DNA of 64,000 nt from Candidatus Endomicrobium macrotermitis (GTDB taxonomy: Bacteria; Elusimicrobiota; Endomicrobiia; Endomicrobiales; Endomicrobiaceae): the NCBI GenBank assembly GCA_031271405.1, contig JAISVT010000023.1, positions 1 through 64,000 of the forward strand. The letters are read 5' to 3'. Positions 53,285 through 58,151 of this stretch are shown in pieces (the first letter of the stretch is position 1; the number at the start of each line of letters is the position of its first letter). The translations under genes were made by a program, and so were the position numbers. The notes under the pieces are model-generated. The model ran no database searches. It had not been told where the DNA came from and was given only the letters and a program-made list of their open reading frames with translations.

Positions 53285-53381
53285 AGTAATTATACAAGTG
53301 CAAATAAAACAGGGCATAAGACTTTTGTTACGCCCTGTTTTGTTTTTTCTAAAAAACACAAAAAACTTTAGGCCTGTTCGC

Positions 53382-53795
53382 TTAATAGGTTATAAAGGGC
53401 TTTAGTTTTTTTAACAACTTTAGCCTATTTTTATTCTTTAAATAGCATTCCCAAACCCGAATTACTTGCCATCCCTTACTTTTAAGATTTTCAGATACTT
53501 CTTTATCTCTTTTCTTGTTGCGAAGTCTTTTAGATGTCCAGTATTGGTTGTTATCTTTGGGAGTGATATTTCTGCATTTATGTCCGTGCCAAAAACATCC
53601 GTCTACAAACATTGCGATTTTTCTTTCTATGAATACAAAATCTGGCTTTCCCTCTATCTTACAACCTCTACGCCAACCGGTAATATCGTTTTCTTTAAAT
53701 ATCTCTATTAGTTTTAACTCCGTAGATTTATTTTTTTCAGATTTTACTCTTCGCATTATATCAGAACGCTTTACTTTATCAAAAATATCGCTCAT
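53382..53795 (-). CDS. vsr: Very short patch repair (Vsr) endonuclease
   Basis: RSDIMRRVKSEKNKSTELKLIEIFKENDITGWRRGCKIEGKPDFVFIERKIAMFVDGCFWHGHKC. Confidence 0.95.
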   Translation of the reverse strand: MSDIFDKVKRSDIMRRVKSEKNKSTELKLIEIFKENDITGWRRGCKIEGKPDFVFIERKIAMFVDGCFWHGHKCRNITPKDNNQYWTSKRLRNKKRDKEVSENLKSKGWQVIRVWECYLKNKNRLKLLKKLKPFITY

Positions 53796-54526
53796 ATAGC
53801 GTATTCCGCCAATTTTACTGGTTCCAATAAATCTATAATACGATGGACTTTTAATTTTAGTTGAATATTATTACCTGGATGCCGAATATTAGTTTTGGGA
53901 ATATCTTTGCTTAAAGAACCATTACCGCCTTTTCTTTGAAATGCCACACAACATCCAATATTAAAACCGCCCTTCGTAAAAACTATATTAGTCGGCAAAC
54001 TATTTAAAACATCTTTCATTGCGTATATTTTAACTACGGAAGTATCTCTATTATAAAGGACCAGAATTTCACGACTAGGATTGTTTGCAAATCCATACTT
54101 CAATATTCCTTTTGCATTTTTAGCGAAAAATACACCCCATTTTTCTTGTTGTTCTTGTGAAAATAAAACATTCCTAGTATTTTTAGACTTGGCAACGATA
54201 ATATTTTCCAACTCTACTTTCTCCCGTTGCCCAAGTGCAAAATCGTCACAAAATTTAGATACGCTTGTTCTCGTTAATTGATTAAACCCTACGTTATCCC
54301 TAAATCCTTTCACATTAGCATCTATATAGTGCCCACAAGTGAAATTTATTCTAACATCTGATTTATCTCCGTAAATACCGCCGCCGGCCGTATTAGATAA
54401 TGAACCTTGAATATTAAACTTATTTTTCATTTTTTCAATAACAGCGGGATGGTCAATAATACTATTCTTAATTAAAATTTCTATATTCATTCCTGCAAAA
54501 GCGTTTTTATTATTTTTGTTTTTCAT
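53792..54526 (-). CDS. Putative type II restriction endonuclease
   Basis: Sits between the cytosine methyltransferase and vsr with operon-like overlaps; no family recognised directly; GGIYGDKSDVRI and HPGNNIQLKLK are nuclease-like motifs. Confidence 0.6.
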   Translation of the reverse strand: MKNKNNKNAFAGMNIEILIKNSIIDHPAVIEKMKNKFNIQGSLSNTAGGGIYGDKSDVRINFTCGHYIDANVKGFRDNVGFNQLTRTSVSKFCDDFALGQREKVELENIIVAKSKNTRNVLFSQEQQEKWGVFFAKNAKGILKYGFANNPSREILVLYNRDTSVVKIYAMKDVLNSLPTNIVFTKGGFNIGCCVAFQRKGGNGSLSKDIPKTNIRHPGNNIQLKLKVHRIIDLLEPVKLAEYAI

Positions 54527-54527
54527 T

Positions 54528-55475
54528 TTATTTTACCTTTATACTGTCATATACATAACCAATCATTTCAGGAACAACGGCATTTCCAAGTTGCTGATAA
54601 CCTTGCATTCCATCGCTAACAAAATGCCTTGTGGGAAAGCCCATAACTTTTTTGCATTCATTTACAGTTAAACGCCTTATCCCCTGCTTTGTATTATATA
54701 ATCCTGTTCTTGCTCCAACGCCCCCGCCATATGCAGATTGAGTTATCGCATGTCCTTTAGGACTATAAATTCTTTCCCCTTGCCCTCCTTTGTTTACAAT
54801 GCCAACACGAATAGGTTCTAATTTATTTTTAATTTCTTTCTCATTTTTTAATATCTGTATATCATTACGATTAATTATAAAATCTTTATCAACTTCTTTT
54901 TCTAAAACATCCTCTAAAAATACTTTTTTTCTACTTTCTTTTGGCGGTGCGTAATCTAAAGTCTGCTTACAGCATTTTTTCATATCCTTTCTTAAAGCTA
55001 CAAAATAAACGCGTTCTCTTGCCTGCGGGATGCCGAAATACGATGCGTTTAACACATGTTTATGCAGATTGTAACCGCTTTCGTCTAATTTTGTTTCTAT
55101 CGTATTTATAACATTGCCGTTATCAATAGTCAGTATGTTTTTAACGTTTTCCAGAAGTAATATGTATGGTTTATGAAATTCTGCTATTCTTTGTATTTCA
55201 TAAAACAGTCTCCCTCTCGGATCAGAAGTTCCACCCTGTTTACCCGATATGCTAAAAGGCTGACAGGGAAAACCTGCGCATAAAATATCGTGTTTAGGAA
55301 TTTTATTTGCCGGAATTTCCGTTATATCGCCGGCAGGTTTTTCGCCAAAATTCTTTTTATATATATCTTGAGCATACGGGTCTATGTCGCTTGAAAAAAC
55401 ACATTCTAAACCCCTCTTTTCCAATGCAATCCTAAACCCTCCAATACCACAAAACAAATCAACAAATTTATGCAT
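54528..55475 (-). CDS. DNA (cytosine-5-)-methyltransferase
   Basis: MHKFVDLFCGIGGFRIALEKRGL ... CAGFPCQPFSISGKQGG ... LLENVKNI ... RRLTVNECKKVMGFP ... QQLGNAVVP. Confidence 0.96.
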   Translation of the reverse strand: MHKFVDLFCGIGGFRIALEKRGLECVFSSDIDPYAQDIYKKNFGEKPAGDITEIPANKIPKHDILCAGFPCQPFSISGKQGGTSDPRGRLFYEIQRIAEFHKPYILLLENVKNILTIDNGNVINTIETKLDESGYNLHKHVLNASYFGIPQARERVYFVALRKDMKKCCKQTLDYAPPKESRKKVFLEDVLEKEVDKDFIINRNDIQILKNEKEIKNKLEPIRVGIVNKGGQGERIYSPKGHAITQSAYGGGVGARTGLYNTKQGIRRLTVNECKKVMGFPTRHFVSDGMQGYQQLGNAVVPEMIGYVYDSIKVK

Positions 55476-55508
55476 TTAGCACCCTCCCTACTATTATTTC
55501 CTACAAAT

Positions 55509-55561
55509 AAAAAAGACGACCTTTTGATTTATGCGAGACCAATCCCATAAACAAAAGGTCG
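55509..55561 (-). terminator. Intrinsic terminator within the R-M leader
   Basis: CGACCTTTTG TTTATG [GGATTGGTCTCG] CATAAA T CAAAAGGTCG TCTTTTTT: 16 bp with one bulge, 12-nt loop, U-tract. Confidence 0.8.
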
Positions 55562-55638
55562 CCATCGGTTTCATATGCCGTCCGAAAACGGCATACTACT
55601 CCCTTTATAACTGGCGACACTTTTTTGGGTTGGTCTCG
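55509..55638 (-). ncRNA. Structured RNA leader / attenuator candidate upstream of the R-M operon
   Basis: Minus strand: CGAGACCAACCC...GTCGCCA...ATGCCGT TTTCGG ACGGCAT...TGGCGACC...GGGATTGGTCTCG...CAAAAGGTCGTCTTTTTT; nested stems plus alternative terminator. Confidence 0.65.
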
Positions 55639-55840
55639 TGCTCATATTACTTCAAGCCGGAGAAATGCTCTATTTTAGAAATAGCCATTTCCACCAAAAA
55701 TGTGTCTATTAAATTTTATTAAGCGTCTTTCAACGCTTCACTTTATTCACAGCTCCTAATTTTTCAACAGATTCAAATTTACAGAATTTTCTTTCATTTT
55801 TCAACTAGAACCATTTATTTCCAAATGCCTTTACTTAACG

Positions 55841-57181
55841 TCATAAAAACTCTTCTTCCTTATCTTCCTTATTGCCGTTGGGCACCGCGGTTTCAAGTAC
55901 TGCGGCGGACTGGTCTTCCGGCAGAGCGTCTATGTTTTTGAGTTTATTCATCATTACGTTGGCTCTTGTTCCTACCGCGTCGTCTATATTTCTTATTCCG
56001 CTTTCGAGGTTTTTCTTGACCTTTTCCAAAACGTCGTTAAATTTGCCGAACTCGGTTTTTACGGCTCCCAAAATTTTCCAAACTTCGCTTGAGCGTTTTT
56101 GAATGGACAAAGTCTTGAAACCCATCTGCAAGCTGTTTAAAAACGCGACTAAATTGGTCGGGCCTACTACGATCACCCTGTACTTATTCTGTAAATTTTC
56201 AAATAATCCGACATGGCGCAGTATTTCCGCGTAAAGCCCTTCGGTAGGCACGAAAAGAATAGCGAAATCTGTCGTTTTGGGAGGTTTGATGTATTTGTCG
56301 CTTATATCTTTTGCGCTTTTCTCTATAGCCGTTCTCAATTGTTTGGAAATAGTTTCAACGGAATCGGGATCTTTATCATAAGCTTCGACAAGGCGCTGGT
56401 AATCTTCAAGAGGAAATTTGGAATCTATCGGCAAAAAGACGGGTTCGTTGGCGTCTTTACCGGGAAGCTTGATAGAATACTCCACCACTCTTTTGTCATT
56501 ATCCGCGTCCGGATGATCGTTTTTGACATACTGTTCGGGGGATAAAAACTGCTCCAATATCGCCCCAAGATGCACTTCGCCGAAAATACCGCGGGTTTTC
56601 ACGTTTGTCAGCACTTTTTTCAGGTCGCCGACTCCGCTTGCCAGATTCGACATTTCGCCGAGCCCTTTATGAACGGCGTCAAGGCGCTCGCTTATCAATT
56701 TAAACGATTCGTTGAAGCGTTTTTCAACGCTTTCCTGTAATTTTTCATCGACAATTTTTCTCATATCCTCAAGTTTTTTGTTATTGTCGGTTTGAATGTC
56801 GGTAAGCTTTTTTTCAACGGTCTCTCTTATTTCTTTTAATTTGTCTTCCGTTTCTTTTTTAATGTTATTATGCCTGTTTATAAGATCGTCGAATTTTTGT
56901 TTGTGCAGTTCGTTAAAGTCTTTTATCGTATTCGCGAGAATTTCACCCAAACCCTTAAAAGTATTGCTAAGTTCCTCTCTGCTGATTTTGAAAGCTTCCT
57001 GGTTTTCGTTTCTGTTCCTGCTGAACTCATTCCTGATCAAAGAATCCATGCGCTCAACGGCTATTGAAAACTTTGCCAATTCGTTCTCATCCACTTTAGC
57101 TTTCTTAAAAATCGTGATAAGAAGCACGGTAATAACAAGAACAGCCACGGAACTCAGCAAAATCATCTCAAGTACGCTCAT
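55841..57181 (-). CDS. rmuC: DNA recombination protein RmuC
   Basis: MSVLEMILLSSVAVLVITVLLITIF; coiled coil; GEVHLGAILEQFLSPEQYVKN...EYSIKLPGKD..VFLPIDSKFPLEDYQRL. Start at 57181 rather than 57346. Confidence 0.95.
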   Translation of the reverse strand: MSVLEMILLSSVAVLVITVLLITIFKKAKVDENELAKFSIAVERMDSLIRNEFSRNRNENQEAFKISREELSNTFKGLGEILANTIKDFNELHKQKFDDLINRHNNIKKETEDKLKEIRETVEKKLTDIQTDNNKKLEDMRKIVDEKLQESVEKRFNESFKLISERLDAVHKGLGEMSNLASGVGDLKKVLTNVKTRGIFGEVHLGAILEQFLSPEQYVKNDHPDADNDKRVVEYSIKLPGKDANEPVFLPIDSKFPLEDYQRLVEAYDKDPDSVETISKQLRTAIEKSAKDISDKYIKPPKTTDFAILFVPTEGLYAEILRHVGLFENLQNKYRVIVVGPTNLVAFLNSLQMGFKTLSIQKRSSEVWKILGAVKTEFGKFNDVLEKVKKNLESGIRNIDDAVGTRANVMMNKLKNIDALPEDQSAAVLETAVPNGNKEDKEEEFL

Positions 57182-57197
57182 GTACGTCCCCCCGTTT

Positions 57198-58151
57198 TTA
57201 TATATTTTCCTGCTTACTGTATTTGTTAAGGCACCCGTCCCGGCATTTCGGCGTGCAGGTATGATCGCACGGCTCCACGTGAATATTGACAAGAACGATT
57301 TCAAGTTTTTCGGCGATTTGCCCGTCAATTTTTCTTGTGATCTCATGCGACTGCAAAACCGTCATTTCGGGATCTACAAGAATATGCACTTCGACAAAGC
57401 GTTTATTTCCGGATTTTCTGGTTTTCAAATCGTGATAGCCGCAAATAATGCCTTTATGCGAACGCAGCGCGTCTTCGACAAACGCGACTTCCTCATGCGA
57501 CAGGCTCGCGTCAAACAAATCTTTAGCGGACTTTACCGTAAGCTTGTAAGCCGCTCTTATAATCATAAAAGCCACGACAAGGGCGGCCGCCGGGTCTATC
57601 CAGCTTACGTTCATATCCGGAAACGACAACTTTAAAAACATCATAACGGAAAGAGCGGCCATTACTCCGGCCGACGTATATACGTCGGCGCGCAAATGCC
57701 ACGCGTCCGCTTCCAGCGCCAAAGAATCCGCCTGCTTTGCGACTTTAAAAAGCTTCAAAGAAACGCAGTAATTGACAACCGCCGCGAAAAGCATTATCAA
57801 AACGCCGACCAGCGGAGTTTTTATGTCCCTGGGATTGAGAAGCCTTTCCAAAGATTCGTAAAAAATATATATCGCTGCGGCAAAAATCAAAAGGGCTTCT
57901 ATGGTTCCGGAAATATTTTCATACTTACCGTGCCCGTAAGGATGTTCGTCGTCAGCCGGAACAGACGATTTTTTCACCGCAAAAACAGCTATCAAAGAAG
58001 CGATTAAATCTATGCAGGAATGCACCGCTTCGGATATTATCGAAACCGAGCCTATAATAATGCCTACGGCAAATTTCAACGCCGTAAGGACGGAATTTGA
58101 AAAAACCGACAAATGCGCCGTTTTTAACGCCCGTTTTTCCAATTCTGTCAT
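57198..58151 (-). CDS. Cation diffusion facilitator family transporter
   Basis: SIISEAVHSCIDLIASLIAVFAVKKSSVPADDEHPYGHGKYENISGTIEALLIF. Confidence 0.95.
   Translation of the reverse strand: MTELEKRALKTAHLSVFSNSVLTALKFAVGIIIGSVSIISEAVHSCIDLIASLIAVFAVKKSSVPADDEHPYGHGKYENISGTIEALLIFAAAIYIFYESLERLLNPRDIKTPLVGVLIMLFAAVVNYCVSLKLFKVAKQADSLALEADAWHLRADVYTSAGVMAALSVMMFLKLSFPDMNVSWIDPAAALVVAFMIIRAAYKLTVKSAKDLFDASLSHEEVAFVEDALRSHKGIICGYHDLKTRKSGNKRFVEVHILVDPEMTVLQSHEITRKIDGQIAEKLEIVLVNIHVEPCDHTCTPKCRDGCLNKYSKQENI

What the first reader, a model, noticed from the sequence alone, without database searches (positions are those of the whole stretch)
55509..55638. Attenuator-like structured RNA leader directly upstream of a restriction-modification operon
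Seen on the minus strand. (i) P1 CGAGACCAACCC (55638-55627) pairs with GGGATTGGTCTCG (55546-55534). (ii) P2 GTCGCCA (55618-55612) pairs with TGGCGAC (55564-55558). (iii) P3 is the hairpin ATGCCGT/ACGGCAT (55594-55575). (iv) A 16-bp terminator hairpin (55561-55517) is followed by TCTTTTTT. It ends ~34 nt before the methyltransferase ATG (55475) and just before its GGGAGGG Shine-Dalgarno. P2's 3' strand (GGCGACC) is reused as the terminator's 5' strand, so P2 and the terminator exclude each other. P1's 3' strand is the terminator loop, so a loop-to-5' pseudoknot of ~11 bp is also possible. This is riboswitch/attenuator architecture. R-M operons are known to be controlled by C proteins, by methyltransferase autorepression and by antisense RNA; a leader attenuator of this form on a 5mC R-M-Vsr operon is, to my knowledge, not standard. 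It could sense methylation state, nucleotide pools or translation, or be a stand-alone sRNA.
Basis: partly seen in the sequence, partly recalled or inferred. Interest (0 to 1): 0.78.

Follow-up and report, generated by a model that had tools for sequence, protein, structure and literature searches.

The report
Travelling RNA switch before acquired genes
The stretch is part of a previously uncatalogued RNA switch, found in many species of one bacterial phylum, that sits just in front of horizontally acquired genes (DNA-modification and other defence genes, pili, surface-sugar enzymes) and probably decides whether their transcription continues or stops; it is not specific to the restriction system where it was noticed.

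Summary
It forms a four-strand switch. A covariance model finds it in 38 of 296 genomes of the phylum (E to 1e-46), against 1 of 199 and 1 of 200 in two other phyla at chance level. Covariation is very strong: P1 arms differ almost entirely between copies yet match within each copy. A:B and C:D, which were not in the search model, also fit their own partners (z -12 and -18). Rfam has no match.

It is not an R-M leader as such: 81-86% identical methyltransferases elsewhere lack it, and copies precede type III, EcoRI-like and Eco57I methyltransferases, an SNF2-PLD helicase, pilins, glycosyltransferases, LicD, lipoproteins and others, typically about 40 nt before the start codon. It travels with acquired DNA. 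In a relative the whole rmuC-RNA-R-M block (53286-57221) is absent, and in an integrase element an orthologous copy carries a different cargo gene.

Most likely it is a cis-acting transcription attenuator of acquired genes. The signal is unknown.

The parts
55777..55782 (-). candidate -10 box (TGTAAA), weak
   Evidence: By position only: in many homologues a TATAAT lies about 73-80 nt upstream of strand A. The window copy has no consensus box.
55753..55757 (-). conserved AGGAG near the 5' end of the leader
   Evidence: AGGAG in 29 of 57 homologues at -70..-20 from strand A, against 0.75 of 57 in control pieces. No conserved ORF follows it.
55721..55738 (-). hairpin HP0 (AAGCGT/ACGCTT)
   Evidence: By eye, a hairpin at the same place in most homologues with changed but complementary arms (AAGCC/GGCTT, ACAGCC/GGCTGT, AGGTCC/GGACCT). 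Not counted statistically.
55694..55706 (-). strand A, GACACATTTTTGG: pairs with B in the terminator state, can pair with D otherwise
   Evidence: A:B duplex fits own partner better than shuffled partners, z = -12.0; A:C control z = -0.5. A:B was not part of the search model.
55659..55692 (-). hairpin H1, inside the A:B loop
   Evidence: 5 of 5 modelled pairs show changes on both sides, 95.3% of cells paired
55640..55657 (-). hairpin H2; in homologues the loop is a GNRA tetraloop in 25 of 57 copies (not in the window copy)
   Evidence: 7 of 7 modelled pairs show changes on both sides, 96.6% of cells paired; loops
55627..55638 (-). P1 5' strand (sequence differs from copy to copy)
   Evidence: P1:P1' z = -22.1 own against shuffled partners; 10 of 12 pairs with double changes
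55612..55628 (-). strand B, CCAAAAAAGTGTCGCCA (includes P2 5' strand): pairs with A or with C
   Evidence: B:C z = -9.6, A:B z = -12.0
55575..55594 (-). hairpin P3
   Evidence: 7 of 7 modelled pairs with double changes; enlarged to two hairpins in family f13
55547..55564 (-). strand C, TGGCGACCTTTTGTTTAT (P2 3' strand = terminator 5' strand)
   Evidence: C:D z = -17.9, B:C z = -9.6
55534..55546 (-). P1 3' strand, also the terminator loop
55509..55533 (-). strand D plus T6: 3' half and U-run of the intrinsic terminator
   Evidence: Directly visible; C:D was not in the search model and gives z = -17.9
54528..55475 (-). C5 DNA methyltransferase, first gene behind the leader
   Evidence: PF00145 1.1e-83, TIGR00675 6.1e-81
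53792..54526 (-). probable restriction endonuclease (no family hit; inferred from position)
   Evidence: no Pfam, NCBIfam, PADLOC or PDB match
53382..53795 (-). Vsr mismatch endonuclease
   Evidence: TIGR00632 5.7e-30
53286..57221 (.). acquired block carrying vsr, REase?, MTase, the RNA leader and most of the rmuC reading frame
   Evidence: Absent from G059, where the flanks (79% and 77% identical) lie 95 bp apart; GC 32-36% over the R-M genes against about 44% outside

Best explanation
It is a cis-acting transcription attenuator of a new RNA family that travels with horizontally acquired genes. Shown by sequence: the RNA has four strands A, B, C, D in the order A-H1-H2-P1-B-P3-C-P1'-D-UUUUUU. 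A and B are complementary, B and C are complementary, C and D form an intrinsic terminator, and P1:P1' directly extends the B:C helix. Inferred mechanism: A pairs with B first during transcription, closing a junction with hairpins H1 and H2. When C and P1' emerge, B:C plus P1 can displace A, which leaves C unavailable and lets A cover D, so RNA polymerase reads through into the gene. If A:B is held, C is free, the C:D terminator forms and the acquired gene stays off. The most likely controlling event is a ligand or protein that holds or opens the A:B/H1/H2 junction; its identity is unknown. The P1 sequence can drift because only two strands must match, whereas A, B, C and D must match in a network, which explains why P1 is the most variable part. 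The confidence given is for cis attenuation as such; that a ligand or protein controls it I put at about 0.45.
For: Covariation over 44 copies: 93.4% of cells paired, 33 of 37 pairs with double changes, score 0.651 against 0.177 shuffled and at most 0.114 when slid. Own against shuffled partners: P1 z -22, A:B -12, B:C -9.6, C:D -18, A:C control -0.5. Copies L146, L150 and L152 show a concerted change of all four strands (for example in L150 A GATTATTTGTTGGA, B TCCACAAATAATCG, C GCGACGATTATTT, D AATAATTCGTCGCC), so the network is maintained as a whole. Energies: terminator state median -70.9 and antiterminator -63.6 kcal/mol; before D is made the antiterminator beats A:B by 15.8; in the window the two end states are near-equal, -68.2 and -70.5. 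Placement before genes: 38 of 57 against 11% of random positions. Phylum-restricted: 38 of 296 against 1 of 199 and 1 of 200 marginal hits. Travels with cargo: empty site in G059; L066/L068 share promoter, RNA and gene only; L097/L144 are colinear from -3.6 kb, through an integrase, to the start codon and then carry different genes; L083/L087 RNAs are 96% identical with unrelated flanks.
Against: No transcript, read-through or ligand data. Within aptamer-like parts (H1, H2, junction) few bases are invariant across both families, less than in typical metabolite riboswitches. The regulon has no common pathway, so no ligand can be guessed from it. Strand boundaries for one search come from an alignment fitted to the model, and the shuffles ignore relatedness. 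In some genomes of genus g8 the copy lies 146-204 nt from the next gene or has none close by.
Confidence: 0.75

Rival explanations
1. The leader is a fixed, unregulated attenuator and insulator: it blocks read-in from outside and sets a partial, kinetically determined read-through for newly acquired genes, with no ligand.
For: The two end states are close in energy (window -68.2 and -70.5) and the outcome would depend on timing; the cargo has no common metabolic theme; aptamer-like parts vary in sequence.
Against: A fixed leak needs only a weak terminator, not a maintained four-strand network with H1, H2, HP0, GNRA loops and AGGAG.
Confidence: 0.3
2. Ribosome-linked attenuation: a ribosome or 30S subunit bound at the conserved AGGAG, perhaps at a start-stop or very short ORF overlapping HP0, alters folding of A, or protects the 5' end.
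For: AGGAG in 29 of 57 copies at a nearly fixed distance, against 0.75 expected; several copies have NUG-UAA start-stop codons just before HP0 (L066, L068, L083, L086, L087, L091, L093, L150), and the window has GTG-AAT-AAA-GTG-AAG-CGT-TGA.
Against: No conserved start codon, codon run or peptide; many copies have no start codon at usable spacing; genus g8 lacks the AGGAG; AGGAG lies about 50 nt from A, beyond a normal ribosome footprint.
Confidence: 0.2
3. A mobile repeat (MITE-like or insertion-sequence-derived terminator) that merely lands upstream of genes.
For: Copies with unrelated flanks and up to 96% identity; in genus g8 the 5' TTTTTTGGTGG and a 3' CCGCCAAAAT about 75 nt past the terminator are complementary, like terminal inverted repeats; mobile attenuators derived from IS terminators are known (PMC2965389).
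Against: P1 arms differ between copies but always match; orientation and distance to genes are fixed; no target-site duplications or terminal repeats seen in the other genera; boundaries fall at the promoter and near the start codon.
Confidence: 0.1
4. A methylation- or SAM-sensing leader dedicated to R-M operons.
For: DNA methyltransferases head 8 of about 57 loci; for PF01555 alone 4 loci against about 110 hits in 35 whole genomes.
Against: Most copies precede unrelated genes (pilins, glycosyltransferases, lipoproteins), and close MTase relatives lack the RNA.
Confidence: 0.03

Closest known systems
trp-type transcription attenuators (1:2 / 3:4 against 2:3 hairpins)
   Same: Four strands, two alternative pairings, terminator as the 3:4 hairpin, SD-like sequence near the 5' end
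   Different: No conserved leader peptide or regulatory codons; an extra helix P1 extends the antiterminator; shared by unrelated acquired genes
Transcription-terminating riboswitches
   Same: Structured 5' domain (junction with two hairpins, frequent GNRA loop) that competes with an antiterminator
   Different: No known ligand, no invariant binding pocket visible, no common pathway among the target genes
Mobile attenuators of Naville and Gautheret 2010 (PMC2965389)
   Same: Similar terminators upstream of unrelated genes, linked to mobile DNA
   Different: Those are simple IS terminators of recent spread; this one is a conserved, covarying switch with its own promoter region that moves with its cargo
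Regulation of R-M systems by C proteins, MTase repression and antisense RNA (reviews PMC3874152, PMC12707154)
   Same: Controls expression of an acquired R-M operon
   Different: No leader attenuator was found in those reviews ('attenuat' and 'riboswitch' occur 0 times in the 2025 review, 'attenuat' once in the 2013 one)
Contingency (phase-variable) loci, phasevarions
   Same: Target list looks alike: type III Mod, pilins, LicD, glycosyltransferases, lipoproteins
   Different: Switching here would be in RNA folding, not by repeat slippage or DNA inversion

Membership tests
Any Rfam 15 family | covariance-model match | tested here: not met
   No hit at gathering score, nor at E<=10 for the window copy; best hit for an f13 copy is E=0.67 to a microRNA; 14 further loci gave only tRNAs
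Transcription attenuator (general) | mutually exclusive terminator and antiterminator helices in a 5' leader | tested here: met
   (sequence and energy level only)
Transcription attenuator (general) | read-through that responds to a signal | not testable with these tools
   needs transcription assays
trp-type leader-peptide attenuator | translated leader ORF with regulatory codons overlapping strand 1 | tested here: not met
   AGGAG conserved, but no conserved ORF or codons after it
Riboswitch | conserved aptamer that binds a ligand | tested here: inconclusive
   Conserved junction architecture and frequent GNRA loop but few invariant bases; no ligand test possible
IS-derived mobile attenuator | derived from an insertion-sequence terminator, with IS remnants or terminal repeats | tested here: inconclusive
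   Terminal-repeat-like ends only in genus g8; elsewhere tyrosine integrase or resolvase genes are near some copies, but the module lacks repeats
Type III toxin-antitoxin RNA (ToxIN-like) | tandem-repeat RNA before a homologous toxin gene | tested here: not met
   No tandem repeats in the RNA by inspection; downstream genes mostly not homologous to each other
R-M-specific control element | associated with R-M genes of one kind across species | tested here: not met
   MTase homologues lack it; the RNA occurs without R-M

The most novel reading that the evidence does not exclude
A new signal-sensing RNA class that serves as the portable on/off control of mobile-element cargo in this phylum: one RNA architecture coordinates restriction-modification, other anti-phage genes, pili and surface sugars, and the copy-specific P1 helix keeps neighbouring copies in one cell from cross-pairing.
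Probability: 0.3. Interest if true: 0.87.

Novelty: new variant of a known kind. Interest (0 to 1): 0.72.

Why it matters
R-M systems are known to be controlled by proteins, methylation and antisense RNA; a leader attenuator is not among the modes found in the reviews consulted. Here one structured RNA, absent from Rfam, stands before a whole class of acquired genes (defence, pili, surface sugars), moves with them, and is kept base-paired while its sequence changes. If it responds to a signal, it would show how a poorly studied gut and termite-symbiont phylum keeps newly acquired, costly genes in check, and finding that signal becomes a concrete experiment.

Tried and rejected
Rfam at gathering and permissive thresholds: nothing. 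BLAST against phage and plasmid records: nothing. A 44-sequence model could not be calibrated. The constrained-fold script over-forbade pairs, so its numbers are invalid and were replaced by segment folds. A second copy in the window's genome (G000:C3, 22.9 bits) is at noise level, since unrelated loci reach 14 bits, a hit at a sigma-factor-like coding region reaches 25.3 and other phyla 23-25. Looking for rmuC in three relatives gave nothing, consistent with its being inside the acquired block. DNA inversion at the P1 repeats was considered and rejected: the enclosed segment would be nearly unchanged by inversion. A kissing contact between the f13 P3 loop and the 5' leader (AATTAGT/ACTAATT) did not covary by eye. 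A leader peptide was considered: start-stop codons in some copies, but no conserved ORF.

Full report
OBSERVATION. The 151-nt segment folds to -55.9 kcal/mol against -32.9 +- 4.0 for shuffles (z -5.8). Rfam has no match. The downstream operon is a C5 methyltransferase, an unidentified protein in the place of a restriction endonuclease, and Vsr.

HOMOLOGUES. BLASTN over 296 genomes of the phylum found the leader in genomes without this methyltransferase, while genomes with 81-84% identical methyltransferases gave none. Aligning these copies showed that conservation extends upstream to a TTTTTGG strand, two hairpins, a small hairpin and an AGGAG. A covariance model from seven copies found the RNA in 38 of 296 genomes with E-values down to 2.5e-46, in the window's family and in one other family, with about six confident copies in the richest genome. 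The same model in 199 and 200 genomes of two other phyla gave one marginal hit each (E about 0.009), the level expected by chance. Methyltransferase homologues from Elusimicrobiota, Endomicrobium, Treponema, Bacteroidota, Clostridia and Rickettsia records have no such RNA; the best scores there are 14 bits. The second family is probably Elusimicrobiaceae, which was not tested.

STRUCTURE. On 44 copies aligned to the model, 93.4% of cells are standard pairs, 33 of 37 pairs have changes on both sides, and the covariation score is 0.651 against 0.177 for shuffles and at most 0.114 for slid partners. The alignment was fitted to that structure, so a second test was made that includes helices the model did not contain. 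Cutting each copy into strands A, P1, B, C, P1', D and comparing own with shuffled partners gave mean duplex energies of -12.4 against -8.6 for A:B (z -12.0), -20.6 against -13.0 for C:D (z -17.9), -13.1 against -3.9 for P1 (z -22.1), -14.3 against -11.5 for B:C (z -9.6), and no difference for the control pair A:C (z -0.5). A:D shows a small effect (z -4.7). Copies L146, L150 and L152 have changed all four strands together. Relatedness is not removed by these shuffles.

SWITCH. Two states compete: A:B with terminator C:D, and B:C extended by P1, in which A can cover D. Segment folding gives medians of -70.9 and -63.6 kcal/mol for the two states. Before D is transcribed the antiterminator is favoured over A:B by 15.8 kcal/mol. 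In the window the terminator state and the overall minimum (antiterminator plus A:D) are -68.2 and -70.5. This is the balance expected of a co-transcriptional switch, but folding energies alone do not prove regulation. P1 needs only two-way complementarity while A-D need four-way, which accounts for the high variability of P1 and the conservation of the rest.

5' END. AGGAG occurs in 29 of 57 copies 20-70 nt upstream of A, against 0.75 expected from control pieces, mostly near -50, and a TATAAT lies near -74 in many. No ORF is conserved after AGGAG. Its role is unexplained; a ribosome-binding or 5'-protecting role is possible.

TARGET GENES. 38 of 57 copies have a same-strand SD plus ORF starting within 100 nt (median 40), against 11% for random positions. 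Identified first genes: C5 methyltransferase (window), type III Mod (L062, L092; L097 and L143 by N6_N4 domain and mutual 64% identity), Eco57I-type (L066, L068), EcoRI methylase (L069), SNF2-PLD helicase (L144), a weakly PtuB-like HNH protein (L073), pseudopilins (L080, L086, L090, L091, L096, L146, L147), glycosyltransferases GT2 and GT8, LicD, PMT_2, HAD-glycosyltransferase, sulfatase, PIF1, outer-membrane protein, and lipoproteins. For PF01555 alone, about 110 hits exist in 35 whole genomes and 4 lie directly behind the RNA, a strong enrichment. The list resembles phase-variable contingency genes (a comparison from general knowledge).

MOBILITY. In relative G059 the window's flanks (79% and 77% identical) are joined with 95 bp between them, and the block 53286-57221 (vsr, REase?, MTase, RNA, most of the rmuC frame) is missing; the R-M genes have 32-36% GC against about 44% outside. 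L066 and L068 share promoter, RNA and the Eco57I gene but no flanks. L097 and L144 are colinear at 82% from -3.6 kb, through a tyrosine integrase, to the start codon, then carry a type III Mod-Res pair and an SNF2-PLD helicase respectively. L083 and L087 share only the module from about -82 to +206 at 96% identity. So the module moves with, and sometimes between, cargo genes. Known mobile attenuators are IS terminators (PMC2965389); this one is a maintained switch.

VERDICT. Shown: a conserved, covarying four-strand RNA family absent from Rfam, in front of acquired genes of one phylum. Inferred: cis attenuation of transcription. Unknown: the signal, and whether there is one.

Noticed in passing
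L097 and L144 (G044:C29, G245:C32): Integrase-bearing element with the same RNA leader but a different defence cargo (type III Mod-Res or SNF2-PLD helicase), exchanged at the start codon.
   Followed up: partly
L061, L063, L064, L067, L071, L074, L076 (genus g8): Copies carry a further stretch about 75 nt past the terminator, in several ending in CCGCCAAAAT, complementary to the 5' ATTTTTTGGTGG; some have no close downstream gene. Possible repeat-like derivative or extra switching strand.
   Followed up: partly
L065 (5905-6489) and L077 (970-1430): Two tandem copies of the RNA before one gene, with similar P1 sequences and one partly degenerate copy.
   Followed up: no
window 55753-55757 and homologues: Strongly conserved AGGAG without a conserved ORF; in several copies a start-stop NUG-UAA precedes hairpin HP0.
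   Followed up: partly
f13 copies, e.g. L083, L092, L139: P3 is enlarged to two hairpins; the first has a conserved loop GGACUAAUUACCC or GGCCUUAUAACCC, sequence-conserved unlike the stems.
   Followed up: no
window 53792-54526: 244-aa protein between the C5 methyltransferase and Vsr with no family or structure match; probably a new type II restriction endonuclease.
   Followed up: partly
window 55841-57346: rmuC lies inside or at the edge of the acquired block and was not found in three same-genus genomes.
   Followed up: partly
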